Position numbers and translations under genes: made by a program. Source: Motacilla alba alba (lineage: Eukaryota > Chordata > Aves > Passeriformes > Motacillidae). From it: DNA of 64,000 nt. Where the stretch lies: assembly GCF_015832195.1 (NCBI RefSeq), contig NC_052019.1, positions 47,433,016-47,497,015 on the forward strand, read 5' to 3'. The notes under the pieces are model-generated. The model saw nothing but the letters and a program-made list of their open reading frames with translations. It did no database searches and was not told where the DNA came from. Of the stretch, positions 8,985 through 36,750 are shown one piece after another (position 1 is the stretch's first letter; every line of letters begins with the position of its first letter).

Positions 8985-9134
8985 TCATAAATAAATGGGA
9001 ATATACAGATCTGGAGTAAGTTCCTCCCTGCATGTTGGGCACATGCCGACAGTCTCGAGGGCAACAGGGAGGCACTCGCTGCAGAAGACATGGCCACACA
9101 TGGTTGCCACCATCAATCGTCCACTTTGCACAAT
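8985..9134 (-). CDS. RNF4-like copy A, last exon: RING C-terminal half
   Basis: 50 codons including TGA. It reads IVQSGRLMVAT then CGHVFCSEC (zinc ligands C3, H4, C5, C6), CPTC (C7, C8) and ends PIYL, very close to the RNF4 C-terminus, which ends in HPIYI. Splice acceptor ctccag, phase 0. The ending is important in RNF4, whose C-terminal residues lie at the dimer interface (family knowledge). Confidence 0.95.
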   Translation of the reverse strand: MVQSGRLMVATMCGHVFCSECLPVALETVGMCPTCREELTPDLYIPIYL

Positions 9135-12100: not shown

Positions 12101-15100
12101 ATCACGCAGAGGAGACTACTAGAGGGCCTTCTGTTATAGAGAACAGATGCAGAAAGAACATGCAGCCATTAATTTCACCATGTATGACAGGTTACTGATA
12201 CAGAAATGCCAAAAAGTAAAACACCCCTTATTCTGATTTTGCAACATCCCAGCCCAATTTCAATTACTTTTTATGTACCTCAGCCTCTTCAGTGTTACTT
12301 AAGTGTTACTGAAAGATACATTTAATTAGGATTTTTTGAACAGAGAGAAGAAAAACCATAAAGCTTGGCACAAAACTGTTTCTATCATATATCAGAGATT
12401 AAACTTCGAAGAGACACTTAATCTGCCACATACATTTCAATATCTTGTTCTTCCTCTTCACTCTCATTTGCCAGTACTTCAGCTGCATTCTCTGCTGCTC
12501 TGGAACCAAGTGGGTTTTGCTGGCTCTGCTCCCAGCAATGGGGTAAAAATGGAAACAGATTAGGAGCTGCCTGAATATTCCTGAACAACTTGCTCTCCTG
12601 TATCAGTTCCCTAAGTTGATTTGGCCTGGAGTCTTTTCTTTCCCTCTTTCTCCACCAAAAGGACCAATGATTAGCCTAAACACTGTGTTAGAAGGACAGC
12701 TGCTAAAAGCCAGAAACCACAATAGGAATTTGGAGCACAGAATTCCAGTTCGCAGCTCTATTGGCACCAGGCAAATAGGACTTGGGCTATGTGCAGTCTG
12801 TCACTCAATGCTACAGAACTATAAGGAACACAAAGATCTGCCAGTGCATCCTGGAAAGGGCTTCTCCCTCAGTGGACACCATCAAGAAAAGACTTGGAGC
12901 AATGGGCAAGTTGGAGCTTCCCAGCAAGGGCTGTGGATCCTCACCTCTGCATTGTCATCCTCACAAATCGGAGGACTAATGACACGTGCTGTCCATGCAC
13001 TAGAGAGAGCAGAACAAGAAGAACATGCAGCTGTTAATTTCACAGTTCATAGAGGGCTTCCAAGACATAAAATTGCAAAAATTGAAACAACCTCTTATTC
13101 TCATTAAGCAACATCCCAGCCCAGAAACTCAGTCAGTGAAAGAGCTTTTATGTATTGCAAGCATTTCACGGTATCGCAATCCATAATTTAAGAAACATTG
13201 AATAATGACTTCCTGAATGGAGAAGAAAGGTTTCTCCTGCATTTGCTGGTTTTTAGAGTTTTCTTTCTGTTACTTCTCTTCCAGACAGGCCACTATGGGT
13301 CAAGTCAGATTCCATCACACAGAGTCAAGCAGAATGCAACAGTTTGGCCAAAAAACCTGTGTCTATCGTATATCAGAAATTGCACTTTGGAGGGACACTT
13401 CATCAGTCACATACTCATTGTTATCTCTTGGTTCCTCTTCATTGTCACTCGCCCGTAGCTCAGCTGAACTCTCTGTCTGTCTGTCACCAAGTAGGTACTG
13501 CTGGCTCTGCTCCCTGTCCTGCACCTGTGAGTTGTCACCCTCACTCATGGGAGGACTAGCAGGACCAGCTGGCCATGCACTAGAGAGAACCAGAAAGAAC
13601 ATGCAGCCATTTGAACAAGGAGTCAATAATTTCACTGCGGACAGAGAGTTACCAACACGTAACACCTATTCTGATTTAGCAACATCCCAGCCCAGCACCA
13701 CAATTGTTTCCTGAGCTGCTATGTGCTGCAGGCATTCAGCACATATCAAGCCATACTATAACAAATATTCAACCACGACTTCATGAAAAGAAAAGAAAGG
13801 ATTCAGCTGGATTTTCCTATGTGTTTTTTTGATTCTTTTACATACTTCTCTGCCAGACAGGCCACTATATTCCAGGTCTGAAGTCTCTGCACAGACTCCA
13901 GCAGAACCCAGAAGCTTGGCAAAAACCTGTTCCTACCATGCATCAGAAATCAGAATTTAGAGAGACATTTTACTCTCACATACCCATCATTATCTCTTGG
14001 TTCCTCTTCATCATGAGTTGTCACTGCATCAGCTGAATTCTCTGCTGATCTGGAAAGATGCAAAAGCTCCTGGTTCTGCTCCCAGGCCTGCAGTGGGGTA
14101 AAAATGAAGACAGAGTAGAAACCACTCAAAACAACTCTATCCTCCTTCCCTGTATCAGTTCCCTGATTGGATTTGGGCTAGAAGCTTTTCTTCCCCTTGT
14201 TAGCCCCATAACAGGCAACTTCTGCAGTCATAGCCCTAAACACTTCATCATGTTGGATAAACAGCTGCTGAAGAATGGAAACCACAACAGAAATTTGGGA
14301 GTAAAGAATTCCAGTTTGCTGCTCTCTTGGCACCAGGCAAACTGGACTGGGAGTATGTGCAATCTGCTGCTTAATGATAGAACCACAAAGAACACACCGA
14401 TCTGCCAGTGCCATCCTGGCAAGGGCTTCTCCCTCTATGGACACCACCAAGGAGGGACTTGGAGGAATGGGCAAGCTGCAGCTTCCCAGCAAGGGCTGTG
14501 CTTCCAGCCAGCTGCCCATAGCACCCACCTAAAACAACTGAGTTTTGCAGCTCCCCTTTTGTCCCTTTCCCTCCCACACACCACAAAGGACAAGAACATG
14601 TGGGTCCTCACCTCTGAGTCCTCATCTGACCAAAACGGACGATCAAAATCAAATCGCAGCCAATCACTAGAGAGAGCAGAACCAGGAGAACATGCAGCTG
14701 TTTAAACATTTATTTCACTGGGCACCAAAGGTTACCAACAAAGAAAACGCTGGAACTTAAAACATCCTCTATTCTGATTAGGTAACATCCCAGGCCAGAA
14801 ACTAATCAATCCAAGAATTTTTATGGACGGCAAGCATTTCAATGTGGCCAGCCATTCTCTCACATTCAATGTTAGATGGACAGCTTCTAAGAAGCTAGGG
14901 CTTCACAAACAGAGAGAAAAAAGGATTCTGCTGGATTTTACTGGGTTTATTTTAATTCCCTTCTAGGCAGGCCACTATATTCCAGGTCTGAAGTACTTGC
15001 ACAGACTTAGGCAGAGCCCAGAAGCTTGGCCAAAACCTCTTACAACCACTTATCTCAAATTAATGTTTTGATAGACACATTCACATACTCATCCTCTTCT

Positions 15101-17488
15101 ATTGGCTCCTCTTCATCATTCCTTGCCAGTGGCTCAACAGAATTCTCTGATGCTATGGGAAGATGTGGCTGCTGCTGGCTCTGCTCCCTGTCCTGCAATG
15201 GGGGAGAAATAGAGGCACTTAGGAACCACCTGAACACTGTACTTCCTAATTTCCCTGCTTCAGTTCCCTAATTGGGTTTGGGCGGAAGCCATTTCTTCCT
15301 CTCTCTCTCCTCCAAACTGGCAATTTCACCTGTGATAGCCTGAACACTACTTATTATCTCAACAGCTACTAAAGAGAAAAAACCCCATACCCAAACCTGC
15401 TCTTGTGTTTAGTGCGCGTGGACCTGGGCCATGCAAATCCTGTTGTAAAATGTCAGGCCTTTTCTTTGCAAAGGTTCAGGATCAACCCTATCAGGATATA
15501 TCTCCCATGCTGCTTGCTGCACATTTCTGTTTTGCACAGCAGCAGTGGCATCCCAAATTTGAGCAGATGCACTGCACTGTGGGCTGGATGCAAGCATATT
15601 CTTTTAAGGCAGTAGGGGGAAATGAAAAAAATCCAAATGTGACCCTTTTAAAGAATTCTTGGAAGAAGAAACCACTGTAGTGTATACCTCAGGCAGCTGC
15701 AGTTGCATTTTACACCTCAATGACAGAGGTACCTTAAACTGATGTTACAGCTAAAACACTTCTTACTTAGGAAGTCCAAAACTTCTTGTGCTCTCCTTTA
15801 AATCTCGGGAGCAACAACCTCTTTTAGACTATTCACCTACTCGCTGCAAGCAGTTCTCAGGCATGCTGATGTGTCCATGAATGTGTTTGTGGCTGACTGG
15901 AAATTGTGCCTAAAGTGATAAATCAGGGTCTTCTTTCAACCTTTGAGGCCAGGGTACTCAGTAAGATTGCAGAAGATAGGCAAGAAAACTACTTTGAATG
16001 CAAGACGGAGAGGAGTGCGCCAGTCACTACTTACCAGAGAAGACTCATTATCACTGACGGTGATGACTTCAGGCTCAGAAGATTCACCTGTGAGATCTAT
16101 GAATTCTCCACCAGCTGAAAAGAGAGAACATTAGAGCCAAGGTCAGAGATTGCAGAGGAATGCAATGGGTAGCCACTGTAGAACAGGCTGTGGTTGGATT
16201 TCATTGTGCCCTTGGTCTCTTTTTTTCAGGAACGTGTCCAACATTTCACTCAAGCTTTCCCCTCAACAGTCCACAAGGAGCAATGCCAGCCCTGTCCCTC
16301 TGAAGGGGCAAAACAAGAGGAAGAGCAGCTGAGCTCCTCACAACTTCTCTTGGATGACACCACCTTACAGGATGTTCACATCAACAAATGATTCATTTCA
16401 TATAGGGGAATGCTTAGCACACAGGGGGAAAAAAACCCAACCAACACTAGAGGGGATACCAATTTTATGGTACCATGCTCTAGATTGGTTCCTTGAAGGA
16501 TGGGGCACAGCTAATGGCAGGTTTTCCTCATCTTCATCCAGCTTGGGAGATCCCAAACTCAGCTTGCCACCCTCCACTGTGGCAGCTGCAGTGACTGCCA
16601 GCTCATCAGAACACACAGGCAGGTCTTTGAGCAGCACTTGAGGACCTTGGCTACACAGCTCCTCTCCCACTAGCAGCCAGTGTATGGAGCTCAGTAACAA
16701 ACCAGAACAGTTCTCAGAAGGCTTGCTGTTTAGGGATGCCATACCAGATGCTTCCTCAATCCCAAGGTTTCCCTTTCTCCCCAGTAAAGGACCTAGAAAC
16801 TGGCAAAAGCACATGGCCAGATGGTCTTCAACCCTCCAGAAGCAGCTTCTGCTCTCACCAGGCTCAAAAGCAGGTGCACCACTTTCCTCAAGCTCTATTG
16901 GCTCTGTCTGCGAAGTTCCACCTGCGCTGGAGGGCAGCAGCCTGCTCCGTTTCCGAGCTGGTCTGGAACCAACTGCTCCTCCAGGGCGCTTTCGGCAACG
17001 CTGAGAGGGAAAAAAGCTTTAGCATCTTCTGTGGCACTAATCTTAACACGGCCCTCAGTTTTTGCAACACCAATGACAGCACACAAGGATACAGAAAACT
17101 CTCCTGCAAAGGCTGGAATGCACACAAATGGTGCTCTGGGCCATTCCCACCTGAGCACAGGGATCACATCAGGGAAAAGACATCACCCCTGATCTCCCAC
17201 AAGCTGCCTCCCCAAGAAAGAGCCTGTCCCAGTGGCTTGAGAATGAGGAGACCAGTTCCCAATTCCAGCAGGTTGCTGCTCACACCGTAAGCATTTCTGC
17301 ACTACAGCTAGCACCCACAGAGATTCAAAACCTTCACTATTCCAGAACATCAAGTGACATCAAGTTTTCAAAGGCTTCTGTTCTTATGCATTTGCTACAA
17401 ACACTCTTGAAATCCTTTCTAGAAGTACTCTGGAAAATGTTTTAAGAATCAGATTTGCATTGAGTAGCAAAGTACTTACTGTGCTCAT
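8985..17488 (-). CDS. RNF4-like SUMO-targeted ubiquitin ligase, copy A (spliced gene)
   Basis: Whole coding span, exons listed separately. The model starts at ATG 17,486-17,488 and ends at TGA 8985-8987. It joins 17480-17488, 16859-17000, 16035-16114, 15089-15192, 14612-14666, 13984-14087, 13415-13579, 12945-12999, 12434-12528, 12079-12118, 9994-10094, 9422-9476 and 8985-9134, giving about 384 aa in one frame. RNF4 reads SUMO chains on a target through SIMs and attaches ubiquitin through a dimeric RING, mainly in the nucleus. Visible here are MST then a basic RKR-type N-terminus, EPIELEE, one FIDLT SIM, a VITV element, a chain of acidic exons and a full C3HC4 RING. The arginine-rich motif that follows the SIMs in RNF4 is missing. 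The 5' end of the 9994-10094 exon is uncertain. Expression is untested, and this could be a recently duplicated gene under decay. Confidence 0.82.
9422..9476 (-). CDS. RNF4-like copy A: RING N-terminal half exon
   Basis: 55 nt, entered in phase 2 and left in phase 0 with donor GTAAGG. It encodes AEQGVVIRCPICMDTYSE. CPIC supplies zinc ligands C1 and C2, and the run matches the RNF4 CPICMDGYSE block. It joins in frame to IVQSGRL of the next exon. Confidence 0.94.
9994..10094 (-). CDS. RNF4-like copy A: acidic exon before the RING
   Basis: Encodes VDGSGNGTGANDVPAADSA then PAEQGAVEEGTALS, leaving phase 2 at donor GTACGT. Copy B has the same frame with a 3-nt length difference, which supports coding. 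The 5' edge is uncertain. The copy B acceptor position is mutated here (ACAT in place of CCAG), so I use the next in-phase AG. A clean upstream acceptor (attacag, exon start 10141) would enter in phase 1. Confidence 0.6.
10142..11513 (-). other. Intron of copy A, highly conserved with copy B
   Basis: About 1.4 kb with almost no differences from 24,490-25,810 in unit B. The open frames here (60-89 aa) are repeated in both copies only because the DNA is repeated. No exon with family similarity was found. Confidence 0.55.
11514..11617 (-). pseudogene. Decayed acidic exon, copy A
   Basis: After an acceptor-like ctgttgcag, the sequence aligns with the start of the acidic exons (..GAGCAGAAxCAGCAG..). 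It opens with TAG TGA in the homologous frame and has further stops, and the acidic end and donor are lost. It was probably once a module exon and is now skipped. The copy B counterpart at 25,811-25,914 has the same stops, so the decay predates the segmental duplication. Confidence 0.65.
12079..12118 (-). CDS. RNF4-like copy A: degenerate RING-N exon retaining CxxC
   Basis: 40 nt, 5 codons shorter than the 55-nt family but in frame, with donor GTAAGG. It encodes SLLCVICMSCYSQ. The CxxC pair of the RING survives with one extra cysteine. The corresponding RING-C half exon is not recognisable downstream, so a complete second RING is unlikely. Confidence 0.68.
12434..12528 (-). CDS. RNF4-like copy A: acidic module exon
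   Basis: Encodes QSQQNPLGSRAAENAAEV then LANESEEEEQDIE, leaving phase 2 at donor GTATGT. The usual cag/GAC acceptor is lost (ttgctgggag). The nearest AG gives a 95-nt exon that keeps phase 0 to 2. If the exon instead ran past the donor it would hit a stop after MYVAD. Confidence 0.66.
12945..12999 (-). CDS. RNF4-like copy A: degenerate RING-N exon
   Basis: 55 nt, phase 2 to 0. Encodes AWTARVISPPICEDDNAE, aligning residue for residue with AEQGVVIRCPICMDTYSE. The first RING cysteine has become proline and the second is kept, so it cannot bind zinc in the RING manner. Confidence 0.74.
13415..13579 (-). CDS. RNF4-like copy A: fused RING-N/acidic exon
   Basis: A 55-nt RING-N-type exon (AWPAGPASPPMSEGDNSQ) and a 104-nt acidic exon (DREQSQQYLL..ASDNEEEPRDNN) are separated by only GTGCAG (13519-13524), the two ends of a lost intron. 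It reads in frame as VQ, so the two are probably one 165-nt exon. No zinc ligand remains. It leaves phase 2 at donor GTATGT. NEEEPRDNN followed by YVT resembles the DDEE..RD.DVYVT stretch of RNF4. Confidence 0.78.
13984..14087 (-). CDS. RNF4-like copy A: acidic module exon
   Basis: 104 nt, acceptor cactgcag, donor GTATGT, phase 0 to 2. Encodes AWEQNQELLHLSRSAENS then ADAVTTHDEEEPRDND. The DEEEPRDND end is the best match to the acidic stretch of RNF4. Confidence 0.78.
14612..14666 (-). CDS. RNF4-like copy A: degenerate RING-N exon
   Basis: 55 nt, phase 2 to 0, donor GTGAGG. Encodes DWLRFDFDRPFWSDEDSE. It has the exact length and splice phase of the RING-N exon but all cysteines are replaced, and it is now an acidic, aromatic linker. 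Confidence 0.74.
15089..15192 (-). CDS. RNF4-like copy A: first acidic module exon
   Basis: 104 nt, acceptor cccattgcag, donor GTATGT. Encodes DREQSQQQPHLPIASENS then VEPLARNDEEEPIEED. It follows the SIM exon directly, where RNF4 has its arginine-rich stretch. That basic stretch is absent. Confidence 0.78.
16035..16114 (-). CDS. RNF4-like copy A: SIM exon with a single IDLT unit
   Basis: 80 nt, enters in phase 1 and leaves in phase 0 at donor GTAAGT. Encodes (A)GGEFIDLTGESSEPEVITV then SDNESSL. FIDLT and VITV are hydrophobic cores flanked by acids, as in RNF4 SIMs (IVDLT, VVIV). It is the ancestral-looking state of the 39-unit exon in copy B at 30489-31471. Confidence 0.9.
16859..17000 (-). 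CDS. RNF4-like copy A: N-terminal basic exon
   Basis: 142 nt after acceptor ctctcag, donor GTGAGA. Encodes RCRKRPGGAVGSRPARKR then SRLLPSSAGGTSQTEPIELEE. It matches the RNF4 N-terminus (MST then RKRRGGA.NSRQ, later EPIEL). The basic cluster is a likely nuclear localisation signal and PIELEE overlaps the first RNF4 SIM. The frame remains open for about 150 further codons into the intron (see findings). Confidence 0.92.
17480..17488 (-). CDS. RNF4-like copy A: start exon, MST
   Basis: ACC-ATG-AGC-ACA then GTAAGT. A three-codon coding part with a consensus donor, joining to CGT to give MSTR, the exact RNF4 N-terminus. A candidate acceptor (ctgcag) lies at 17,586-17,591, so the exon may start near 17,585. 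That part is uncertain. Confidence 0.88.
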
Positions 17489-19608: not shown

Positions 19609-19646
19609 TATATATATACATATATATACATATATACACACACACA
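19609..19646. repeat. (TA)n(CA)n microsatellite
   Basis: Alternating TA runs followed by a CA run. The orthologous tract in unit B is at 36,024-36,070. Confidence 0.85.
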
Positions 19647-20022
19647 TTGAAAGGGTTAATTATTAACCATATACCAAAATGTTAAAAGAAAATTGCCTCA
19701 GCTTATGGTGTTGAGCCATAGTAACATCTGTTTAAACCTACTGTAAAATCAGCTCAGTGTCATTTCATTGCAGGTTACTTAAGATCATACTTACTTTACC
19801 ATAAAGGTTACTTAAATGCTCTTTTTACTGAGAATACCTGGCATTGCATGTCACCTAGGAATACAGCTTTTTGAAAGACATTTAGACAATTTAGAAAGGC
19901 ATTTCTGCTGACTGTCATTGCATCTACAAAGTAGCTAAAAGTCTAGCAAAAATGAGCAACAGAAAACATCGGTCTCAAATTTATGGCCATCCTGTAAGTA
20001 AATAATTTTATTTGTGCCTGTT

Positions 20023-21844: not shown

Positions 21845-21994
21845 TCATAAATAAACGGGAACATATACATCTGGACTGTGTTCCACCCTGCAGGTTGGGC
21901 ACACTTGAGAAGTCTCCAGGGCAATAGGGAGGCATCTACTGCAGAAGACATGGCCACACACGGTTGCCACAAGATGTCGTCCATGTTGCTTAAT
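21845..21994 (-). CDS. RNF4-like copy B, last exon: RING C-terminal half
   Basis: Encodes IKQHGRHLVATVCGHVFC then SRCLPIALETSQVCPTC and ends SPDVYVPVYL. All six remaining zinc ligands are present. By eye it differs from copy A at 16 of 49 residues although the adjoining intron is essentially identical. Confidence 0.94.
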   Translation of the reverse strand: MKQHGRHLVATVCGHVFCSRCLPIALETSQVCPTCRVEHSPDVYVPVYL

Positions 21995-24900
21995 CTGGAG
22001 GAAAGAAAATCACAACAGGTATTGGGAGGAAATCATTTGAGTTTGCTGCTTTATTGGCACCAGAGGCTCTATTTAGAGCATCTGGAATCAGTTAGAACAA
22101 TGAGGGACCCATAGATTTGCCAGTACCATCCTGGCAAGGGCTTCTCCCTCTACATCTCCTTCACCATCAAAGAAGTGACTTGTGGAGCTTCACAGCAAGG
22201 GCTGTGCTTCCAGCCAGCTGCCCACAGCACCCCACATCATCCAACAGACTTGTGCAACTCCCCCTCTGGCTTCCTCCTCCCACAAAGCAGAAAGGACAAC
22301 AACAGGTGGATCCTTACCTCTGAGAAAAATTCCATGCAAATTGGACACCTAATAACAACTCCTTGCTCCGCACTAGAGGAAACAGAACTAGAAAGAAAGT
22401 ACAGCTGTTAAGATCACCACACTTCAATGGTTACTGATATATGAAATCTCATATAATCATGCAGCTGCACTGACTAGCCATGACACATTTCCTTTGAGGA
22501 ACCCTGCTGTCTTTAAGTCTCTGTTTCCTGCATTTAATGAGGATTTGGGGTCTCCCTGCCCTGAGCTAAAGGGTGTCCTGCTTTTCACCAGGAGAAAGGT
22601 GCAGTCAGTCACCCTGCTCTGGGATTTGAAGTAACAGCAGTCTCCAGCACTGGCCAGTTTCTGTATGGCGACTTGGACTTCCAGCAGGTCATCAGTAACA
22701 AAAGCTTTGTAACTACAGCATCCAGCTGTCCTCTGGGAACTATTCACCCCAGAATATTCATTCCAGGATCCAGTTCTAAATTACAGAGTTATACGGCTCT
22801 GGCAAGATCCAGCCCTGGGAAGGAGCATTTGGTCAATTTTAAATTGACCTCAGTGCTGCAGCACTGAGCTCTTTCAGCCTTACCTAAACAGAGCAGTTAC
22901 ATTCAGTGACTGAGAAGCTTGAGACTGAAGGAACGAAATATTCCTTTTTTATATTAAGCAAGGGGTGGGGTTTGTTCACTAACAGACTTAACAACCAAAA
23001 CTTAAACATCTACAAATTCATTGGCAAAATGCATTATGGTTTAGAATAGTAGAAGCCCTTTAGTGGCACATTTAAGGCCTGACATCTAAAAAGTTCCATC
23101 CTGAAGTTTTCTCCTATATTGCCTTTCCAAAAGGCTCAAAGCACACCAGGTTTATTAAAAACCTGTGTCTTTCCCCCCACCCCCAAAAAACACTTCAGAA
23201 AAGCTTATACCATAATGCTCATGTTCTTTGTCTTCCCTAGTGACACAGACACCTGGTTTAATTTAATCAGTCTAATGAATTGCATCTTTCTTATCCTGAT
23301 GGAGTGCTTCTACAGCAGGCCTTTCCTGTTTCTCTGCAGAATGAGGATTTTACTGTGCAGACATCCAACCTGAACTGCAAGATCTCCACCACAGAAGCAA
23401 AACAAATCAGGGCTTGTGACATCCAGCACTGGCCATAAAAGCATGACCTCCACAACCACTTATGTGCAAGTCTACCTTGGGAAGAAGGACTCCAGCTCCA
23501 GGAGAAAGGCAACCAGCTGGCACCATTCCAGCAGGGAATTTCTGCTGGAGTTTGCCCAGCTGCTGTCTGCCAGTTCCACGATGCCAAGCTCAATGAATTA
23601 CAATGGAAGCATTTCCATATCTAACATCACTACTAGAGCTTGTCAGAAAAAGCAAATGCAATACTGAGCTATGGCCTGTGACCAATCCCCCTTCCTGGCC
23701 ATACCCCCACACTCATCTCTAACCCTCTGTGCAAAGTTGTGCATCTGCTCTGGGCTGCATTTTTCTCCCAAAATGCAAATGGTATCATCTGATCATCATG
23801 CAACATGGGAGAAGGAGGGAAATAAGCAGAGTATGGGAAGGCCTCACAGATAAACCAGGCATACCTGTAAACCCTAGTCCTACACAGAAAAGAAAGAAAG
23901 GCACAGAATTCTGTGTTTGGTAGGGCATGAGCCATACATACTCTGAACTTGCAGTGTCCTCCTCTGCTCCCTGTTCTGCAGGGGCTGAGTCAGCCACAGG
24001 TGCATCATTAGCTCCTGTTCCATTACCAGAGCCATCCACCTGCTCCTGGCTGTTCAGTGTAACATTTCTCCTTTCCTGTCCATGCACTGTAATTTAATTT
24101 TCAGAAGTTAGATCTATTATTCTCCCTCTCCCTGGAGCTACCCTTGAAATGAGTTATATAAATAGTCAGCAAATTATTTTAATTTTTTTAATGGACTCTA
24201 TTCAGCTGGATTGAAAACAATCTTAAACAAACTACTTTCCCAAATACTAAGACTGGACCCTTCCAGACATTGTGACTCTTCTGCTACAAAACAACACAAA
24301 GTATTTGCTCTGTTCAGCCTCCAAACAGCTAAAAAAGGAGACCAGAGAGGTTCTCAAGGACAGTCCATGAAAACTATAAAATTACTTGGAGCAGTATGCC
24401 CTCAGACCTTAGAAATTGTCATCATCTTCCTCCTTTATTAAGATATTTTGAAAATGGATTTATATGTGATGCAAAATGTATATAATGTGAAAGATTTCTT
24501 AAGGAAGGATGCTCTTTGTATTCCTATGTTTGATCCCTGTATACTTTCAAGCCAAATCAACCAGAAGGGAGATTTATTCCATTAAATGGACAACAACTCA
24601 CGAAGAGGATCTAAGTGATGTCCATGGGGCAGAAAAACAAATTCCTTGTTGGTAGAATTGCCTTGTTAAGGTTCAGGGCTTGACATGCTTCAAGGAACTC
24701 AGACCCAGGGAAGGCTTAATAAAGCTTGGGGAGAAGGATGCCCACTGAGAGTGGACGCAAAGAATGCAGAATTGAGGGGCCAAATGGACATCTGGCACAA
24801 CTCCCAAGATAAGGAAGAAACTAAGAAACCCAACTCCCTGAAACCAGCTCTGACTGGTAAAAAGTAATTCCTGCAGGGGGAGATTGCGACCACCGACTCA

Positions 24901-27900
24901 TGGAGCAGCAACTCAAGAAACTCCCCAGCCCAAAGGAAGAGGGAGACTGAGCAATGCACTGAGTGCACTAATTACAGTGAGAAGTGAGACAGAAGAAGGC
25001 ACAATACTAGCTAAGAAGATACCCGTGTCCCTTGTAACCAATTAATGCTAATTTCTTTGCTTGTTTAAATTTATAAATAGTAAAAGTTATTTTGATAATG
25101 GGTGTGTCTGATTTGTGAAATACCACTGAGCACCCAGACTGGTGAAACACTGAAACAAACAACCAATGTCTCTCTCAAGTGGATTGTTATTTACCTGTTG
25201 CACCCCAGTAACAAATCCAATTTTTGTGGACAGCAGATTGACCAAGTTACAGGGAGAACCACTTTTAATGGCCTGGTCTGTAACAGCCCCCAACAGGGTC
25301 AAGAAATGCTGTTTGCTCTTTAACTCTCAGAAACCACAGGCCACGATGACCTCTGCAACTCCAGTGTCCATGTCACACTAATCAACCACTAATCAATTAA
25401 AATTGCAGAAAGTGTTACCAAATTAAAGTTCTTTCTGCATTAAGTATTCAGCTACCACTTTTATTGCAGGGATTTCCCGCTCTGACTGACAGAGGCTGTC
25501 ACACACACACTGCATCCGTTCTCTGAGACACTGGCCAGAGGCTTTAGCCCTGTGCTTTGCCTTTTGCTACAAAGCAGTTTCAATCCCTGCTGCTCGACTT
25601 TCTGGGAAAAGAACAACAAAAATAACTTCTACATTTTAGATAAAAATCCATTACCAGCTGTATAACATCAACTCACCTTCAGGAAGCTTCAATCGATGCA
25701 CATGGAAAGGGATAGAAAAGAAGATACAATTAGATTTGACGAGCCCCCCTGGTGCTGCACACAAACCTCAGCTCAGAAAGCAGTTACAGCAGGGGAGGTG
25801 AGGAAGGGTAGGGTATCATCCTCTATGCTTGGTTAAGAGCATTCAAAGCAGTAGCACAAAGAGCTGCTGCCCTGAGAAATAAAGAAGTGGGTGCTGCTGA
25901 TTCTGCTCTCACTACTGCAACAGGGTAGAAACAGAGGCAGCTTAGGAACCTCCTGAACACCCTCCTCCCTGGTCCCCTGTTCCCTGCTTAGATTTGACCT
26001 GGAGCTGTTTCTTTCCCTTGTTAGCCCCAAAACTGGCAAATTCTGCTATGACAACCTTAACACTTCATGTTAGATGTACAGCTGCTGAAGAAAGAAAACC
26101 CCAACAGAAATTTGGGAGTAAAGAATTCCAGTTTGCTGCTCTCTTGGCACCAGGCAAACTGGACTGGGAGTATGTGCAATCTGCTGCTTAATGCTAGAAC
26201 CACAAAGAACACACCGAGTTGCCAGTGCCATCCTGGCAAGGGCTTCTCCCTCTATGGACACCACCAAGGAGGGACTTGGAGGAAAGGGCAAGCTGCAGCT
26301 TCCCAGCAAGGGCTGTGTTTCCAGCCAGCTGCCTGTGGCACCCACCTAAAACAACTGAGTTTTGCAGCTCCCCTTTTGTCTCTTCCCCTCCCACAAATCA
26401 GAAATTACAACACTGTGTGGATCCTCACCTCTGCGTTTTCATCCTCCCAGTTTGGAGGACTAACAAACCTCCTCCTTAGTCGTTCACTAGAGGGAACAGA
26501 ACCAGAAAAACATGTAGCTGTGAATTTCACAGAGCACAGAGTTACCAAAGAAACATATAATTGAGGAAATTTAAATAACCCTTTGTTCTGATTTTGCAAC
26601 ATCCCAGCCCAGAAACACAATCAAGTGCAAGAGCTTTTATGTACTGCAAGCATTTCAGTGTATCACAATCCATAATGTGAGAAACATTTACTAATGACTT
26701 CCTGACAGAGAGGCAATGTTTCTCCCGGATTTTACTGGTTTTTAGGTTGGTGCATCAGAAATTACACTTTGGAGAGACACTTATCTGTCACGTACAATTC
26801 AATATCTCGTGGTTCCTGCTGAAGGTTGCTCGCCAGCAATTCAAGCGAATTCTCTGCTGACCTAGAACGAAGTGAGTACTGCTGGCTCTGTTCCCAGTCC
26901 TGCAGAGGAGTAAAAATGGAGACTGAGTAGGAACCACTTGAAGCCACACCATCCTGCCTTCCTGTTTCAGTTTCCTGACGGGCTAGAAACTTTTCTTTCC
27001 CTTGCTAGCCCTAAACATTTTGTGTTGGATAAACAGCTGTTGAGAAACAGAAACCACAACCACAGGAATTTGGGGAAAAAAGTTTGCTGCTCTATTGGCA
27101 CCAGGCAAACTGTATCTGGGGCGTGTGCAGTCTGTCAGTCAATGCTAGAACTACAAGGAACACACAGATCTGCCAGTGTCATCCTGGAAAAGGCTTCTCC
27201 CTCTGTGGACACCATCAAGAAAGGACTTGGAGGGATGGGCAAGTTGGAGCTTCCCAGAACGGGCTGTACTTCCAGTCAGCTGCCTGTGGCATTCCACCTA
27301 GGACAACTCAGTTGTACAGCTGCCCCTCTGTCTCCTCCCCTCCCACAAATCAGAAACGACAAGAACGTGTGATAAGAACACGGTGCTTACATCTGTAATA
27401 TCATCCCGCCATGTCGGAGGACTCTCAAAACGGTCTGGCCATTCATCAGAGTTAACAGAACTAGAAGAACATGCAGCTGTTAATTTCACAGTTCATAGAG
27501 GGCTTCCAAGACACAAAATTGCAAAAATTGAAACAACCTCTTATTCTCATTAAGCAACATCCCAGCCCAGAAACTCAGTCAGTGAAAGAGCTTTTATGTA
27601 CTGCAAGCATTTCATGGTATCGCAATCCATAATTTAAGAAACATTGAATAATGACTTCCTGAATGGAGAAGAAAGGTTTCTCCTGCATTTGCTGGTTTTT
27701 AGAGTTTTCTTTCTGTTACTTCTCTTCCAGACAGGCCACTATGGGTCAAGTCAGATTCCATCACACAGAGTCAAGCAGAATGCAACAGTTTGGCCAAAAA
27801 ACCTGTGTCTATCGTATATCAGAAATTGCACTTTGGAGGGACACTTCATCAGTCACATACTCATTGTTATCTCTTGGTTCCTCTTCATTGTCACTCGCCC

Positions 27901-30900
27901 GTAGCTCAGCTGAACTCTCTGTCTGTCTGTCACCAAGTAGGTACTGCTGGCTCTGCTCCCTGTCCTGCACCTGTGAGTTGTCACCCTCACTCATGGGAGG
28001 ACTAGCGGGACCTGCTGGCCATGCACTAGAGAGAACCAGAAAGAACATGCAGCCATTTGAACAAGGAGTCAATAATTTCACTGCGGACAGAGAGTTACCA
28101 ACACGTAACACCTATTCTGATTTAGCAACATCCCAGCCCAGCACCACAATTGTTTCCTGAGCTGCTATGTGCTGCAGGCATTCAGCACATATCAAGCCAT
28201 ACTATAACAAATATTCAACCACGACTTCATGAAAAGAAAAGAAAGGATTCAGCTGGATTTTCCTATGTGTTTTTTTCATTCTTTTACATACTTCTCTGCC
28301 AGACAGGCCACTATATTCCAGGTCTGAAGTCTCTGCACAGACTGCAGCAGAACCCAGAAGCTTGGCAAAAACCTGTTCCTACCATGCATCAGAAATCAGA
28401 ATTTAGAGAGACATTTTACTCTCACATACCCATCATTATCTCTTGGTTCCTCTTCGTCATGAGTTGTCACTGCATCAGCTGAATTCTCTGCTGATCTGGA
28501 AAGATGCAAGAGCTCCTGGTTCTGCTCCCAGGCCTGCAGTGGGGTAAAAATGAAGACAGAGTAGGAACCACTCAAAACAACTCTATCCTCCTTCCCTGTA
28601 TCAGTTCCCTGATTGGATTTGGGCCAGAAGCTTTTCTTCCCCTTGTTAGCCCCATAACGGGCAACTTCTGCAGTCATAGCCCTAAACACTTCATCATGTT
28701 GGATAAACAGCTGCTGAAGAATGGAAACCACAACAGGCATTGGGAGTAAAGAATTCCAGTTTGCTGCTCTCTTGGCACCAGGCAAACTGGACTGGGAGTA
28801 TGTGCAATCTGCTGCTTAATGCTAGAACCACAAAGAACACACCGATCTGCCAGTGCCATCCTGGCAAGGGCTTCTCCCTCTATGGACACCACCAAGGAGG
28901 GACTTGGAGGAATGGGCAAGCTGCAGCTTCCCAGCAAGGGCTGTGCTTCCAGCCAGCTGCCTGTGGCACCCACCTAAAACAACTGAGTTTTGCAGCTCCC
29001 CTTTTGTCCCTTTCCCTCCCACACACCACAAAGGACAAGAACATGTGGGTCCTCACCTCTGAGTCCTCATCTGACCAAAACGGACGATCAAAATCAAATC
29101 GCAGCCAATCACTAGAGAGAGCAGAACCAGGAGAACATGCAGCTGTTTAAACATTTATTTCACTGGGCACCAAAGGTTACCAACAAAGAAAACGCTGGAA
29201 CTCAAAACATCCTCTATTCTGATTAGGCAACATCCCAGCCCAGAAACTAATCAATCCAAGAATTTTTATGGACGGCAAGCATTTCAATGTGGCCAGCCAT
29301 TCTCTCACATTCAATGTTAGATGGACAGCTTCTAAGAAGCTAGGGCTTCACAAACAGAGAGAAAAAAGGATTCTGCTGGATTTTACTGGGTTTATTTTAA
29401 TTCCCTTCTAGGCAGGCCACTATATTCCAGGTCTGAAGTACTTGCACAGACTTAGGCAGAGCCCAGAAGCTTGGCCAAAACCTCTTACAACCACTTATCT
29501 CAAATTAATGTTTTGATAGACACATTCACATACTCATCCTCTTCTATTGGCTCCTCTTCATCATTCCTTGCCAGTGGCTCAACAGAATTCTCTGATGCTA
29601 TGGGAAGATGTGGCTGCTGCTGGCTCTGCTCCCTGTCCTGCAATGGGGGAGAAATAGAGGCACTTAGGAACCACCTGAACACTGTACTTCCTAATTTCCC
29701 TGCTTCAGTTCCCTAATTGGGTTTGGGCGGGAGCCATTTCTTCCTCTCTCTCTCCTCCAAACTGGCAATTTCACCTGTGATAGCCTGAACACTACTTATT
29801 ATCTCAACAGCTACTGAAGAGAAAAAACCCCATACCCAAACCTGCTCTTGTGTTTAGTGCGCGTGGACCTGGGCCATGCAAATCCTAAAAAAAAAAGTCA
29901 GGCCTTTTCTTTGCAAAGGTTCAGGATCAACCCTATCAGGATATATCTCCCATGCTGCTTGCTGCACATTTCTGTTTTGCACAGCAGCAGTGGCATCCCA
30001 AATTTGAGCAGATGCACTGCACTGTGGGCTGGATGCAAGCATATTCTTTTAAGGCAGTAGGGGGAAATGAAAAAAATCAAAAAAATCCAAATGTGACCCT
30101 TTTAAAGAATTCTTGGAAGAAGAAACCACTGTAGTGTATACCTCAGGCAGCTGCAGTTGCATTTTACACCTCAATGACAGAGGTACCTTAAACTGATGTT
30201 ACAGCTAAAACACTTCTTACTTAGGAAGTCCAAGACTTCTTGTGCTCTCCTTTACATCTCGGGAGCAACAACCTCTTTTAGACTATTCACCTACTCGCTG
30301 CAAGCAGTTCTCAGGCATGCTGATGTGTCCATGAATGTGTTTGTGGCTGACTGGAAATTGTGCCTAAAGTGATAAATCAGGGTCTTCTTTCAACCTTTGA
30401 GGCCAGGGTACTCAGTAAGATTGCAGAAGATAGGCAAGAAAACTAATTTGAATGCAAGACGGAGAGGAGTGCGCCAGTCACTACTTACCAGAGAAGACTC
30501 ATTATCACTGACGGTGATGACTTCAGGCTCAGAAGATTCACCTGTGAGATCTATGACGTCGTCACCTGTGAGATCTATGACCTCGTCACCTGTGAGATCG
30601 ATGACTTCGTCACCTGTGAGATCTATGACTTCGTCACCTGTGAGATCTATGACTTCATCACCTGTGAGATCGATGACGTCGTCACCTGTGAGATCTATGA
30701 CGTCGTCACCTGTGAGATCTATGACGTCGTCACCTGTGAGATCGATGACTTCGTCGCCTGTGAGATCGATGACGTCGTCGCCTGTGAGATCGATGACGTC
30801 GTCGCCTGTGAGATCGATGACGTCGTCGCCTGTGAGATCGATGACGTCGTCGCCTGTGAGATCGATGACGTCGTCGCCTGTGAGATCGATGACATCGTCG

Positions 30901-32854
30901 CCTGTGAGATCTATGACTTCGTCGCCTGTGAGATCGATGACTTCGTCGCCTGTGAGATCGATGACTTCGTCGCGTGTGAGATCGATGACGTCGTCGCCTG
31001 TGAGATCGATGACTTCGTCACCTGTGAGATCTATGATGTCGTCGCCTGTGAGATCGATGACTTCGTCGCCTGTGAGATCGATGACTTCGTCGCCTGTGAG
31101 ATCGATGACGTCGTCGCCGGTGAGATCGATGACGTCGTCGCCTGTGAGATCGATGACGTCGTCGCCTGTGAGATCGATGACGTCGTCGCCTGTGAGATCT
31201 ATGACTTCGTCACCTGTGAGATCTATGATGTCGTCGCCTGTGAGATCTATGATGTCGTCGACTGTGAGATCTATGATGTCGTCGCGTGTGAGATCGATGA
31301 TGTCGTCACCTGTGAGATCTATGACTTCATCGCGTGTGAGATCTATGACATCGTCGTGTGTGAGATCGATGACTTCGTCGCGTGTGAGATCGATGACTTC
31401 GTCGCGTGTGAGATCGATGACTTCGTCGCGTGTGAGATCGATGATGTCATCACCTGTGAGATCTATGACTTCTTCAACAATTAAAAAGAAAAAGTTAGAG
31501 TCAGGGTCAGAGATTGCTAAGGAATTAGGTGGGCTGCCACTGTAGAACAGGCTGTGGTTGGATTTCATTGTGCCCTCGGTCTCTTTTTTTCAGGAACATG
31601 TCCAACATTTCACTCAAGCTTTGCCCTCAACAGTCCACAAGGAGCAATGCCAGCCCAGTCCCTCTGAAGGGGCAAAACAATAGGAAGAGCAGCTGAGCTC
31701 CTCACAACTTCTCTTGGATGACACCACCTTACAGGATGTTCACATCAACAAATGTGAAATGATTCATATAGGGGAATGCTTAGCACACAGGGGGAAAAAA
31801 ACCCAACCAACACTAGAGGGGATACCAATTTTATGGTACCATGCTCTAGATTGGTTCCTTGAAGGATGGGGCACAGCTAATGGCAGGTTTTCCTCATCTT
31901 CATCCAGCTTGGGAGATCCCAAACTCAGCTTGCCACCCTCCACTGTGGCAGCTGCAGTGACTGCCAGCTCATCAGAACACACAGGCAGGTCTTTGAGCAG
32001 CACTTGAGGACCTTGGCTACACAGCTCCTCTCCCACTAGCAGCCAGTGTATGGAGCTCAGTAACAAACCAGAACAGTTCTCAGAAGGCTTGCTGTTTAGG
32101 GATGCCATACCAGATGCTTCCTCAATCCCAAGGTTTCCCTTTCTCCCCAGTAAAGGGCCTAGAAACGGGAAAAAGCACATGGCCAGATGGTCTTCAACCC
32201 TCCAGAAGCAGCTTCTGCTCTCACCAGGCTCAAAAGCAGGTGCACCACTTTCCTCAAGCTCTATTGGCTCTGTCTGCGAAGTTCCACCTGCGCTGGAGGG
32301 CAGCAGCCTGCTCCGTTTCCGAGCTGGTCTGGAACCAACTGCTCCTCCAGGGCGCTTTCGGCAACGCTGAGAGGGAAAAAAGCTTTAGCATCTTCTGTGG
32401 CACTAATCTTAACACGGCCCTCAGTTTTTGCAACACCAATGACAGCACACAAGGATACAGAAAACTCTCCTGCAAAGGCTGGAATGCACACAAATGGTGC
32501 TCTGGGCCATTCCCACCTGAGCACAGGGATCACATCAGGGAAAAGACATCACCCCTGATCTCCCACAAGCTGCCTCCCCAAGAAAGAGCCTGTCCCAGTG
32601 GCTTGAGAATGAGGAGACCAGTTCCCAATTCCAGCAGGTTGCTGCTCACACCGTAAGCATTTCTGCACTACAGCTAGCACCCACAGAGATTCATAACCTT
32701 CACTATTCCAGAACATCAAGTGACATCAAGTTTTCAAAGGCTTCTGTTCTTATGCATTTGCTACAAACACTCTTGAAATCCTTTCCGGAAGTACCCTGGA
32801 AAACGTTTCAAGAATCAGATTTGCATTGAGTAGCAAAGTACTTACAGCACTCAT
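21845..32854 (-). CDS. RNF4-like SUMO-targeted ubiquitin ligase, copy B, with 39-SIM array (spliced gene)
   Basis: Whole coding span, exons listed separately. The model joins 32846-32854, 32225-32366, 30489-31471, 29534-29637, 29057-29111, 28430-28533, 27861-28025, 27391-27460, 26796-26899, 26429-26486, 23942-24045, 22318-22372 and 21845-21994. This is 2,103 nt and 700 aa, every junction keeping phase. Order: MSA start and basic N-terminus (1-50), 39 tandem SIMs of 8 aa (about 51-361), a VITV element, alternating acidic and degenerate RING-N modules, then a complete C3HC4 RING ending PVYL. RNF4 itself is about 190 aa with four SIMs. Expected role, from RNF4: capture poly-SUMOylated proteins and ubiquitinate them for proteasomal degradation. 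No stop or frameshift is seen. Transcription and array length in the living animal are unproven. Confidence 0.82.
22318..22372 (-). CDS. RNF4-like copy B: RING N-terminal half exon
   Basis: 55 nt, phase 2 to 0, donor GTAAGG. Encodes AEQGVVIRCPICMEFFSE. CPIC is intact. The three residues after the zinc ligands and Met are EFF in place of DTY in copy A. Confidence 0.93.
22630..23690. other. Unit B-specific intronic segment
   Basis: About 1.05 kb in the RING/acidic intron with no counterpart in unit A, where the flanks lie adjacent near 9,715-9,755. No terminal repeats or coding motif recognised. Insertion in B or deletion in A is undecided. Confidence 0.5.
23942..24045 (-). CDS. RNF4-like copy B: acidic exon before the RING
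   Basis: Exactly 104 nt, phase 0 to 2, the length and phase of every other acidic module exon, with donor GTATGT. Encodes EQVDGSGNGTGANDAPVAD then SAPAEQGAEEDTASS. The acceptor (gaacagccag) has a weak pyrimidine tract. An alternative acceptor at 24,087 (attacag) would enter in phase 1. Confidence 0.7.
24110..25810 (-). other. Intron of copy B
   Basis: The first about 370 bases are unit B-specific, and the rest is nearly identical to 10,190-11,510 in unit A. No family exon seen. Confidence 0.5.
25811..25914 (-). pseudogene. Decayed acidic exon, copy B
   Basis: Same remnant as 11,514-11,617: after an acceptor-like ctgttgcag the homologous frame starts with TAG TGA. It is skipped in the model. 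Confidence 0.65.
26429..26486 (-). CDS. RNF4-like copy B: degenerate RING-N exon
   Basis: 58 nt (one codon longer than the 55-nt type), phase 2 to 0. Encodes ERLRRRFVSPPNWEDENAE. No cysteines. The new RLRRR cluster is basic, unlike the other modules. Confidence 0.72.
26796..26899 (-). CDS. RNF4-like copy B: acidic module exon
   Basis: 104 nt, acceptor cctctgcag, donor GTACGT. Encodes DWEQSQQYSLRSRSAENS then LELLASNLQQEPRDIE. It is less acidic than its siblings. Confidence 0.74.
27391..27460 (-). CDS. RNF4-like copy B: degenerate RING-N exon with shifted acceptor
   Basis: 70 nt, phase 2 to 0, donor GTAAGC. The family acceptor (tctag just before the conserved T) is mutated. The next AG, 15 nt upstream (cttctag), restores the frame and adds five codons. 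Encodes SVNSDEWPDRFESPPTWRD then DITD. Confidence 0.66.
27861..28025 (-). CDS. RNF4-like copy B: fused RING-N/acidic exon
   Basis: Same structure as 13415-13579, including the GTGCAG scar in place of an intron. Encodes AWPAGPASPPMSEGDNSQ, VQ, then DREQSQQYLL..DNEEEPRDNN. Confidence 0.78.
28430..28533 (-). CDS. RNF4-like copy B: acidic module exon
   Basis: 104 nt, phase 0 to 2. Encodes AWEQNQELLHLSRSAENS then ADAVTTHDEEEPRDND, the same protein as copy A exon 13984-14087. Confidence 0.78.
29057..29111 (-). CDS. RNF4-like copy B: degenerate RING-N exon
   Basis: 55 nt. Encodes DWLRFDFDRPFWSDEDSE, identical to copy A exon 14612-14666. Confidence 0.74.
29534..29637 (-). CDS. RNF4-like copy B: first acidic module exon
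   Basis: 104 nt. Encodes DREQSQQQPHLPIASENS then VEPLARNDEEEPIEED, identical to copy A exon 15089-15192. It follows the SIM array directly. Confidence 0.78.
30489..31471 (-). CDS. RNF4-like copy B: giant SIM exon, 39 tandem IDLT motifs
   Basis: 983 nt, phase 1 to 0 as in copy A (80 nt). It encodes 39 consecutive 8-residue units of the form D/E-V/I-I-D-L-T-x-D, followed by ESSEPEVITVSDNESSL, which is shared with copy A. The core IDLT is the same in all 39 units. x is mostly G, with R, H and V concentrated near the 5' end. Each unit is a classical SIM core with acidic flanks, so the exon should bind poly-SUMO chains with very high avidity (inference). The acceptor is a NAGNAG type (gaag/aag) that would add or drop one Glu. 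No stop codon in 327 codons. Confidence 0.93.
30540..31471. repeat. 24-bp coding minisatellite (SIM array)
   Basis: About 39 head-to-tail 24-bp units, plus-strand consensus near GATGACGTCGTCGCCTGTGA plus GATC. Units differ by point changes only (CGAT/CTAT, GTC/TTC/ATC, GCC/ACC/GCG) with no length change, so the frame is kept throughout. Many units contain three or four CpGs, making a CpG-dense island inside an exon. The plus strand is also open for 382 codons as a by-product of the 24-bp period. Confidence 0.95.
32225..32366 (-). CDS. RNF4-like copy B: N-terminal basic exon
   Basis: 142 nt. Same product as copy A exon 16859-17000: RCRKRPGGAVGSRPARKR, later TEPIELEESGAPAFEP. Donor GTGAGA, leaving phase 1. 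Confidence 0.92.
32846..32854 (-). CDS. RNF4-like copy B: start exon, MSA
   Basis: ACC-ATG-AGT-GCT followed by GTAAGT. It joins to CGT to give MSAR, so the Thr of copy A and RNF4 is Ala here. Confidence 0.87.
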
Positions 32855-33212: not shown

Positions 33213-33502
33213 CTGTACAGTCAGTCCAGAGTTTGGCTCGCAAATGTCAGCAAATCGCTCTCTATTCCCACCCGGGATGGAGAAGACGGATGCTCCACGT
33301 CTGCTGCGCAGCAGAGAATCCATCAACTGGCTCAACAGACTCCGTGCCAACAGAACCTTGGGAGCAGGAGTGCCCCTGGCAACCGGTGGCAACATTCCAT
33401 GCCCAGGTAACGGGTGTCCGCTGTGCCCACCCATGGAGTTCCAGAACACCAGCCATGGAGGCACCTCAACCATCCCCTGCTGCTGCTGCCAGCCACCAGA
33501 TC
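33213..33502 (-). other. Candidate 5' noncoding exon of copy B
   Basis: Same strong donor as copy A (TGTACAG/GTGAGTGC). The upstream limit is set by the CR1 fragment. The transcription start is not visible. Confidence 0.4.
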
Positions 33503-35912: not shown

Positions 35913-36023
35913 AAATGTGCTTTTCCTTCTGCTGACAACTATGCACCAAGACCGAAACTAATGCTTCACCTCTTCAGTTACTTTTTGCTAATCAGTGCTT
36001 TCCTAGAGCAATATTTTCTAAAA

Positions 36024-36070
36024 ATTATATATACGTATATATATATACACACACACGCACACACACCACA
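36024..36070. repeat. (TA)n(CA)n microsatellite
   Basis: Counterpart of the tract at 19,609-19,646, with interrupted CA units. Confidence 0.85.
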
Positions 36071-36750
36071 TTTCAAAAGGGTTAATTACTAACCCTATAC
36101 CAAAATTTTAAAAGAAAATTGCCTCAGCTGGTGTTGAGCCATACTAACATCTGTTTAAACCTAATATAAAATCAGCTGAGTGCCATTTCACTGCAGGTTA
36201 CTTAAACTTATTTGACCATAAATGGTTTCTTTAAATGCTCTTTTCAATGAGAACACCTGGCATTGCATGTCAGCTAGGAATACAGCTTTTAGAAAGACAT
36301 TTCTGCTTACTGCCACTGCATCCACCAAGTAGCTAGAAGTCTAGCAAAAATGAACAGAAAACATTGGTCTAAAATTTATGGCCACCCTGTAAGTAAATCA
36401 TTTTATGTGTGTTTCTCTAAGGATTACCTTTGAGTAACTTTGACCACTCAGGTAGTTTCCATTAACAGCAAAAATCAAAAGATGGCTTTATCAGAATAAT
36501 AGTAACATTTTACCTTTTTTGTTTAGATCAAGCCACATAAAAATTAGGGGGCACAATGAACCTACTAGGAATGTCCCTTGTTTATCACTACCCCTGCCTA
36601 AATACGCAATAATAAGATCTCCTGAAATATGGCTGAAGAAGCAGATAAATAACACAATAAAGAATAAAATGAAAAACCAAAAACAAGGATACATGTTCAC
36701 GCAGATGACTAACTTTTAACACGGCTTGGTCATCTGTTTCCTGTTATAAG

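What the first reader, a model, noticed from the sequence alone, without database searches (positions are those of the whole stretch)
30489..31471. RNF4-like ligase exon encoding 39 tandem SUMO-interacting motifs
Seen: 39 in-frame 8-residue units D/E-V/I-I-D-L-T-x-D plus a VITV element, in a gene that otherwise follows RNF4 (MST-type start, basic N-terminus, PIELEE, C3HC4 RING). Established: RNF4 has four SIMs and uses them to read poly-SUMO chains. Inference: this is a STUbL with exceptional poly-SUMO avidity, able to scaffold or condense SUMOylated proteins. I know of no described vertebrate STUbL with such an array.
Basis: partly seen in the sequence, partly recalled or inferred. Interest (0 to 1): 0.95.

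Follow-up and report, generated by a model that had tools for sequence, protein, structure and literature searches.

The report
Songbird RNF4-like gene with 39-SIM array
A songbird genome, likely the white wagtail's, carries an extra RNF4-like gene in which one exon encodes 39 back-to-back copies of a predicted SUMO-binding motif, so its protein would likely grip many SUMO tags at once and mark their carriers for destruction; shorter versions of the array occur in related songbirds' gene models, and our paper searches found no description of it.

Summary
In detail: exon 31471-30489 (minus strand) encodes 39 consecutive SIM-like units in frame, then VITV. The window holds two tandem RNF4-like genes. 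Copy A has the array and an open, predicted 717-residue product from 14 exons; copy B has one FIDLT, and pieces of it spell a Motacilla alba protein exactly, 170 of 170 residues. Both belong to a passerine RNF4 paralog family published as RNF4L1-L7 without the word SUMO; RNF4 itself is a separate gene. Arrays of six or more units also occur in gene models of two Vidua species and canary; two Vidua models join array and RING. [quoted passage not shown] One correction: the 8-residue spacing equals that of an RNF4 linker-deletion mutant thought unable to bind a chain linearly, so perhaps every second unit serves one chain. Against: no transcript seen, no wagtail protein for copy A returned, and a weak acceptor before the array exon.

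The parts
30489..31471 (-). Copy A exon 3: 39 SIM-like units plus VITVSD; 983 nt, entered in phase 1, left in phase 0
32846..32854 (-). Copy A exon 1, MSA start (GTAAGT donor)
   Evidence: several homologous models begin MSSRQRKRPGG
33213..33452 (-). Copy A alternative first exon, homologous to the start of canary P0123 and Hirundo P0131
   Evidence: P0123 residues 1-80, 87.5% identity
32225..32366 (-). Copy A exon 2: basic N-terminus and PIELEE (SIM1-like); identical to copy B over 142 of 142 nt
29534..29637 (-). Copy A module exon M1a (acidic, DEEEP)
   Evidence: aligned by P0121, P0123, P0125
29057..29111 (-). Copy A module exon M1b; by eye it resembles the first RING exon in place and length but has no cysteine
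28430..28533 (-). Copy A module exon M2a
27861..28025 (-). Copy A fused module exon M2b/M3a
27391..27460 (-). Copy A module exon M3b
   Evidence: aligned by canary P0123 residues 397-422
26796..26899 (-). Copy A module exon M4a
26429..26486 (-). Copy A module exon M4b
25677..25686 (-). Copy A 10-nt mini-exon (LPE); its copy B twin is needed to spell P0003
23942..24086 (-). Copy A exon 4: weak basic stretch and linker
22318..22372 (-). Copy A exon 5: first half of C3HC4 RING (CPICM)
21845..21994 (-). Copy A exon 6: second half of RING, ends PVYL and stop
8985..17488 (-). Copy B, tandem RNF4-like paralog with a single FIDLT plus VITV (exon 3 at 16114-16035); exons 17488-17480, 17000-16859, 16114-16035, modules between 15192 and 12945, 11389-11380, 10141-9994, 9476-9422, 9134-8985
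   Evidence: pieces of it spell Motacilla alba P0003 exactly

Best explanation
[quoted passage not shown] Shown: array, frame, open 717-residue (with duplicated modules) or 497-residue (without) product, AG/GT ends of the internal exons, RING with its eight zinc ligands and key contact residues, tandem paralog without array, arrays of the same kind in gene models of three other passerine species. Inferred from RNF4: each unit carries the VIDLT core (or IIDLT) with acidic neighbours and would bind SUMO; SUMO chains would gather several molecules, let RINGs dimerise, and the carriers be ubiquitinated. Inferred and specific to this array: with 8 residues from core to core, neighbouring units probably cannot hold adjacent SUMOs of one chain, so about every second unit would serve one chain while the rest allow rebinding or bind other chains. 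The array would then cross-link SUMOylated proteins rather than grip one chain 39 times. The last unit and VITV keep RNF4's 12-residue spacing, so a normal SIM2-SIM3-like pair likely remains at its end.
For: Array and frame. Copy A core and full products open, internal exon ends AG/GT. RING of copy A matches RNF4 chains best, E 4.5e-38 to 4ap4 and 1.9e-19 to 2xeu, and passes the cut-offs of five Pfam RING models, scored in a version whose array I had shortened to two units. Residues named in PMC3991395 for human RNF4, placed by me on the alignment: M136 and R177 (E2 binding) and Y189 (ubiquitin contact) are kept in copy A (CPICM, CPTCR, PVYL); I188 (dimer) is V. Splicing exon 2 straight to M1a shifts the frame and stops at residue 70, in A and in B. 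Models P0121 and P0122 of Vidua macroura hold N-terminus, array (18 and 13 strict units), modules and RING in one protein. Units keep IDLT in 39 of 39; of 6 nonsynonymous variant types 1 lies in the five-codon core, V to I (hypergeometric P 0.033, ignoring shared ancestry of units). The PIAS VIDLT core is described as among the tightest SIMs. Ten PIASx SIMs with (GGS)4 linkers plus five SUMOs phase-separate.
Against: No transcript or protein seen. Three searches covering about 104-333, 270-857 and 394-1254 residues returned no protein named Motacilla alba for copy A (one search listed only the best 120 of 185, searches scored only 7997 candidates each). Copy B's acceptor before exon 3 is changed in A; the one needed scores 0.53 against 6.61 for B's, and 171 of 906 AG sites in the gene span score as high, although the mini-exon and E4 acceptors needed to spell P0003 score lower still (-4.15, -8.56). 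13 CAG|GTGA donor-like sites lie in the coding sequence. 8-residue spacing may hinder linear chain binding. The array adds net charge -111 and copy A's basic stretch is weaker than B's; RNF4 mutants of more extended shape ubiquitinate less (abstract). The synthetic polySIM needed about 150 uM modules to phase-separate at pH 7. A-B RING dN 0.195, dS 0.285: loose constraint only.
Confidence: 0.5

Rival explanations
1. The array product mainly acts as a poly-SUMO sponge or shield: isoforms or copies with the array but no RING bind SUMO conjugates and protect them from RNF4, or nucleate SUMO bodies.
For: Eight of the ten array models with six or more strict units list no RING: canary P0123, Vidua macroura P0124, V. 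chalybeata P0129, P0130, P0133-P0136. The very acidic long array (net -111) and weak basic stretch could hold SIMs and RING apart; more extended RNF4 mutants ubiquitinate less (abstract). E2-binding and dimerisation mutants of RNF4 formed very large SUMO-2 foci after SENP6 depletion.
Against: Copy A keeps an intact RING with M136, R177 and Y189; RING-less models may be incomplete annotation, and several are isoforms of the same locus.
Confidence: 0.25
2. Copy A is a silent or nearly silent tandem duplicate; the array is a minisatellite that grew with little selection after the exon lost its normal acceptor.
For: No M. alba protein for copy A; acceptor weakened; array length varies widely between relatives and is degenerate in zebra finch P0125; the 2014 study considered pseudogenes possible and lists no expression for RNF4L1, L2, L6 and L7.
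Against: Entire 717-residue frame open over 14 exons; IDLT unchanged in 39 of 39 units while flanks vary; homologous array exons are included in deposited protein models; zebra finch RNF4L3, L4 and L5 show expression in embryo, muscle, skin, spleen or testes.
Confidence: 0.2
3. The array, or the second gene copy, is an assembly artefact.
For: Neighbouring copies share long stretches at 97.5-98.3%, and the 2014 study thought most zebra-finch-only tandem pairs, which tend to be above 95% identity, likely to be misplaced alleles.
Against: The copies differ strongly at the 3' end (exon 6: 118 of 150 nt identical; intron E5-E6 80.7%), so they are not alleles; arrays of the same unit occur in gene models of three other species; units differ at many sites (20 distinct of 39).
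Confidence: 0.05

Closest known systems
RNF4 (vertebrate SUMO-targeted ubiquitin ligase)
   Same: Order of parts (basic N-terminus, PIELEE, SIM region, C-terminal C3HC4 RING); core product of copy B is 197 residues; the last two SIM-like cores are 12 residues apart in copies A and B by my count, as in canary RNF4 and the RNF4 SIM2,3 peptide.
   Different: RNF4 has four SIMs of which three were judged functional; copy A has 39 units at spacing 8; separate gene and clade (seven RNF4 rows, 99/100).
RNF4L1-L7, passerine RNF4 duplicates (PMC4377847; passages read)
   Same: Passerine RNF4 paralogs on zebra finch chromosome 4 with one RING near the C-terminus; L3-L6 lie close together at 22.41-22.55 Mb, far from RNF4 at 62.48 Mb. 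Copies A and B belong to such a family by homology; which of L1-L7 they correspond to was not established.
   Different: The paper does not contain the word SUMO and its passages report no SIM array; some copies are described as truncated.
Array-bearing models in Vidua macroura (P0121, P0122, P0124), V. chalybeata (P0129, P0130, P0133-P0136, isoforms of a few loci), Serinus canaria (P0123)
   Same: Same N-terminus, FEP-E junction into the array (in the eight of ten that I read), 8-residue units, module exons, and in P0121 and P0122 the RING.
   Different: 6 to 21 strict units instead of 39; Vidua units partly 9 residues and more degenerate; named only 'uncharacterized' or 'coiled-coil domain-containing protein 1-like'.
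Synthetic polySIM (10 PIASx SIMs, (GGS)4 linkers; PMC10859935, passages read)
   Same: Many PIAS-type SIMs in one flexible chain.
   Different: Man-made, ten motifs with long neutral linkers; here 39 motifs with four residues (T-x-D/E-D/E) between VIDL cores and a ubiquitin-ligase domain.

Membership tests
SUMO-targeted ubiquitin ligase (STUbL) | Catalytic RING related to RNF4 with zinc ligands and E2-contact residues | tested here: met
   residues named, placed by me's alignment
SUMO-targeted ubiquitin ligase (STUbL) | SIMs in the same polypeptide as the RING | tested here: inconclusive
   Open joined frame in copy A and joined in Vidua P0121 and P0122, but no transcript for copy A
SUMO-targeted ubiquitin ligase (STUbL) | Binds poly-SUMO and ubiquitinates SUMOylated substrate | not testable with these tools
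   needs protein biochemistry
RNF4 orthologue | Groups with vertebrate RNF4 rather than with paralogs | tested here: not met
   Seven RNF4 rows form a separate clade (99/100) in a 47-row RING tree of 62 columns; most other forks weak, and no starred set holds copy A or B. Canary and V. chalybeata have both genes
Passerine RNF4L family | Closest relatives are passerine RNF4-like proteins | tested here: met
   best hits; P0003 identical to spliced copy B pieces
SIM (hydrophobic core with acidic flank) | hhXh core of I/V/L with acidic residues beside it | tested here: met
   39 of 39 units read (V/I)IDL with D or E just before the core and again three residues after it; consensus as given in PMC8616421
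SIM (hydrophobic core with acidic flank) | Measured SUMO binding | not testable with these tools
   A search for solved chains like the unit gave only weak unrelated matches (chains under 20 residues are not held)

The most novel reading that the evidence does not exclude
Songbirds have evolved natural poly-SIM scaffolds fused to a ubiquitin ligase: fast-growing SIM arrays in tandem RNF4L copies that gather SUMOylated proteins into bodies and destroy or hold them there, with valency set by repeat number and tuned between species by expansion and gene conversion, perhaps in conflict with viruses or selfish DNA.
Probability: 0.2. Interest if true: 0.9.

Novelty: new variant of a known kind. Interest (0 to 1): 0.72.

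Why it matters
RNF4's ability to read SUMO chains was found to rest on three working SIMs and their spacing. A natural series of relatives whose models hold 1, 2, 3, 4, 6, 10, 13, 18, 20, 21 and 39 units (the 3 by the looser pattern) gives an evolutionary titration of SIM valency and spacing in one ligase framework. The only comparable poly-SIM met in our reading is a man-made ten-motif protein used to study condensates. If expressed, these genes would let one test whether high SIM valency makes a better ligase, a sponge, or a condensate scaffold, and why songbirds in particular changed their SUMO-reading machinery.

Tried and rejected
Rejected: that an open frame alone shows coding (three of six frames are open, so openness of the array was not used as evidence). 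Rejected: that copy A is RNF4 itself. Rejected: alleles instead of paralogs (exon 6 identity 118 of 150 nt). Tried without result: Rfam and tRNA scans of the window (0 matches); Pfam on eight flanking ORFs (0 families at E 0.01), so no neighbour gene was identified and synteny with the zebra finch chr4:22.4 Mb cluster is not shown; PDB search with a stretch of SIM units gave only weak unrelated matches, best E 0.05; Pfam matches of the array (DUF7443, THUMP, SocA_Panacea) are below their cut-offs and taken as low-complexity matches. The RING tree has few columns: it separates RNF4 from the paralogs but does not settle which paralog copy A is orthologous to; Vidua array copies and copy A are not neighbours in it, so arrays may have arisen or moved more than once. 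For that tree I chose 49 of the 154 proteins then listed plus the two window copies; four of these 51 rows were dropped (Origma, Dasyornis, Elachura, Hirundo P0131) because the script found no RING or too short a one. My first exon guesses for M3b, M4a and E4 read stops or missed the mini-exon and were replaced; the queries were made before that and lack the mini-exon. A simple rule that copies without array have the junction FEPAGGE is wrong: P0131 and P0005, with one unit, and P0126, with one unit per repeat, do not. Structure prediction was not used: a spliced product is not a letter-for-letter stretch of the window.

Paper reading: PMC4377847, PMC4083429, PMC3901395, PMC12751080, PMC3991395, PMC8616421, PMC10859935 and PMC7393505 by passages; PMC13204468 outline and abstract only; others by search listing. 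'Not described' rests on searches of the open-licence PMC library only. The position of RNF4 residues on copy A and the resemblance of module exons to the first RING exon are my reading by eye.

Full report
WHAT IS THERE. The minus-strand exon 31471-30489 is 983 nt long and reads 39 uninterrupted eight-residue units (D/E)(V/I)IDLT(G/R/H/V)(D/E) followed by SSEPEVITVSDNESSL. Tandem Repeats Finder gives a 24-nt unit, 38.7 copies, 93% matches and no indels. There are 20 distinct nucleotide units among 39; neighbouring units are slightly more alike than distant ones (0.926 at lag 1, 0.888-0.901 at lags 7-12), as expected of local duplication. Openness is weak evidence because a 24-nt unit keeps its frame and three of the six frames are open through the array.

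TWO GENES, NOT ONE. A self-comparison shows two tandem copies on the minus strand, sharing long stretches at 97.5-98.3%. Copy A (32854-21845) carries the array. Copy B (17488-8985) has an 80-nt exon 3 with one FIDLT plus VITV. Exons 2, M1a and M1b are identical between A and B (142 of 142, 104 of 104, 55 of 55 nt), while exon 6 is identical at only 118 of 150 nt. So, by inference, the 5' halves were recently copied or converted and the 3' halves are older. RING dN is 0.195 and dS 0.285 between A and B.

THE PRODUCT OF COPY A. With a 10-nt mini-exon and the duplicated exon modules, copy A gives a 717-residue open product over 14 exons; without the modules 497 residues. Internal exon ends are AG/GT. 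The modules come in pairs, an acidic exon and an exon that by eye resembles the first RING exon but lacks its cysteines; module blocks start and end in phase 0, so they can be skipped in frame. Exon 3 cannot: splicing exon 2 to M1a shifts the frame and stops at residue 70 in both copies. The RING matches RNF4 best among solved chains (4.5e-38 to 4ap4, 1.9e-19 to 2xeu). On that alignment it keeps the residues that I equate with human M136, R177 and Y189, whose mutation removes E2 binding or ubiquitin contact; the dimer residue I188 is valine.

WHOSE GENOME AND WHICH FAMILY. Pieces of copy B, spliced, spell the 170-residue 'RNF185-like' protein of Motacilla alba exactly (P0003). The window is therefore most likely white wagtail. 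Best hits are passerine RNF4-like proteins. RNF4 itself is a separate gene: canary and Vidua chalybeata have both, on contigs of equal length (71,467,394 and 73,120,142), which suggests the same chromosome, and seven RNF4 rows form their own clade. A 2014 study described the family as RNF4L1-L7 on zebra finch chromosome 4, L3-L6 within 22.41-22.55 Mb, with RNA-seq signs of expression for L3, L4 and L5 and none for L1, L2, L6 and L7; the word SUMO does not occur in it.

ARRAYS ELSEWHERE. Of 155 proteins listed by the three searches, 10 have at least six strict (V/I)(I/V)DLT units: Vidua macroura P0121 (18), P0122 (13), P0124 (21); canary P0123 (20); V. chalybeata P0129 and P0130 (10 each), P0133-P0136 (6 each); several are isoforms of one locus. 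In those measured spacing is mostly 8, in Vidua sometimes 9 and once each 13 and 16. P0121 and P0122 contain array and RING in one model; the other eight list no RING domain. Zosterops P0140 has 4, Zonotrichia P0141 2, Melospiza P0145 3 by the looser pattern; zebra finch P0125 has a degenerate array with one unit left; Hirundo P0131 has one unit and Cyanistes P0126 one in each of two repeats. The eight array models that I read enter the array as FEP-E, like copy A; FEPAGGE, as in copy B, occurs in copies without array (P0148, P0008), but other copies without array (P0126, P0131) lack it too, P0145 reads FEPGEE and P0140 AGGE. Outside birds and squamate RNF4, searches returned only short or irregular matches: P0150 (four units, no source name), P0153 (no source name) and a fungal protein P0154 (three); these two calls scored only the 7997 candidates sharing most words.

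HOW IT LIKELY WORKS. The core VIDLT with acidic neighbours is that of PIAS, described as one of the tightest SIMs, and fits the published consensus. In RNF4, SUMO chains gather monomers so that RINGs dimerise and become active. An array would be expected to do this more strongly. Spacing, however, matters: RNF4's SIM2 and SIM3 cores are 12 residues apart (peptide, my count; canary RNF4 also 12). Deleting four linker residues, which by my count leaves 8, lowered tetra-SUMO2 pulldown only slightly but significantly slowed SUMO-targeted ubiquitination, and the authors thought linear chain binding was prevented while non-linear or intermolecular contacts remained possible. A second group concluded that RNF4's closer SIM3-SIM4 pair is too close for two adjacent SUMOs. 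All 38 intervals of the array are 8. I therefore expect alternate units to serve one chain and the rest to bind other chains or rebind, making the protein a cross-linker. The last unit and VITV are 12 apart, a normal pair. This is inference; nothing was measured. Condensation is less sure: the synthetic ten-SIM protein needed about 150 uM modules at pH 7.

AGAINST. No protein named Motacilla alba was returned for copy A in the length ranges of about 104-333, 270-857 and 394-1254 (one search listed 120 of 185). Copy B's acceptor before exon 3 is altered in A; the one needed scores 0.53 against 6.61 in a small matrix made from 12 acceptors of these genes, and 171 of 906 AG sites in the gene span do as well, though the mini-exon and E4 acceptors needed to spell P0003 score -4.15 and -8.56. 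The AGs between 31520 and 31440 are all in frame with it, so the exact choice among those inside the exon costs only a few residues. Selection on units is suggestive only: 1 of 6 nonsynonymous variant types falls in the five core codons (P 0.033), and units are not independent. The acidic array (net -111) and the weaker basic stretch may hold SIMs and RING apart; RNF4 mutants of more extended shape ubiquitinate less (abstract).

VERDICT. New variant of a known kind.

Noticed in passing
window 29637-26429 and 15192-12079: Repeated exon pairs between SIM exon and RING in both copies; by eye the second exon of each pair resembles the first RING exon (CPICM...SE) but mostly without cysteines, except copy B's 12130-12079 which still reads LLCVICMSCYSQ.
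   Followed up: partly
window 13442-8985 (copy B): The public Motacilla alba model P0003 starts inside a module exon, reads the next module in another frame and is named RNF185-like; RNF4-like products of 197 or 358 residues are open in copy B.
   Followed up: yes
P0123 (Serinus canaria), P0148 (Vidua macroura): An array protein with 20 strict SIM units is named 'coiled-coil domain-containing protein 1-like'; a Vidua relative without array is named 'microtubule-associated protein futsch-like'.
   Followed up: no
P0137, P0138, P0142 (Pipra filicauda): A suboscine relative has another tandem array, EVTDVES-like units, just before its RING, so this family grew different repeats in different birds.
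   Followed up: no
P0141 (Zonotrichia albicollis): The module block is repeated three times head to tail in one model, with two SIM units.
   Followed up: no
window about 20017-20699: Stretch that interrupts the similarity between 19494-20990 and 35911-36722, consistent with a later insertion between the two gene copies.
   Followed up: no
P0150: Protein of unnamed source with four VIDLT-like units, some 8 residues apart, and no RING listed.
   Followed up: no
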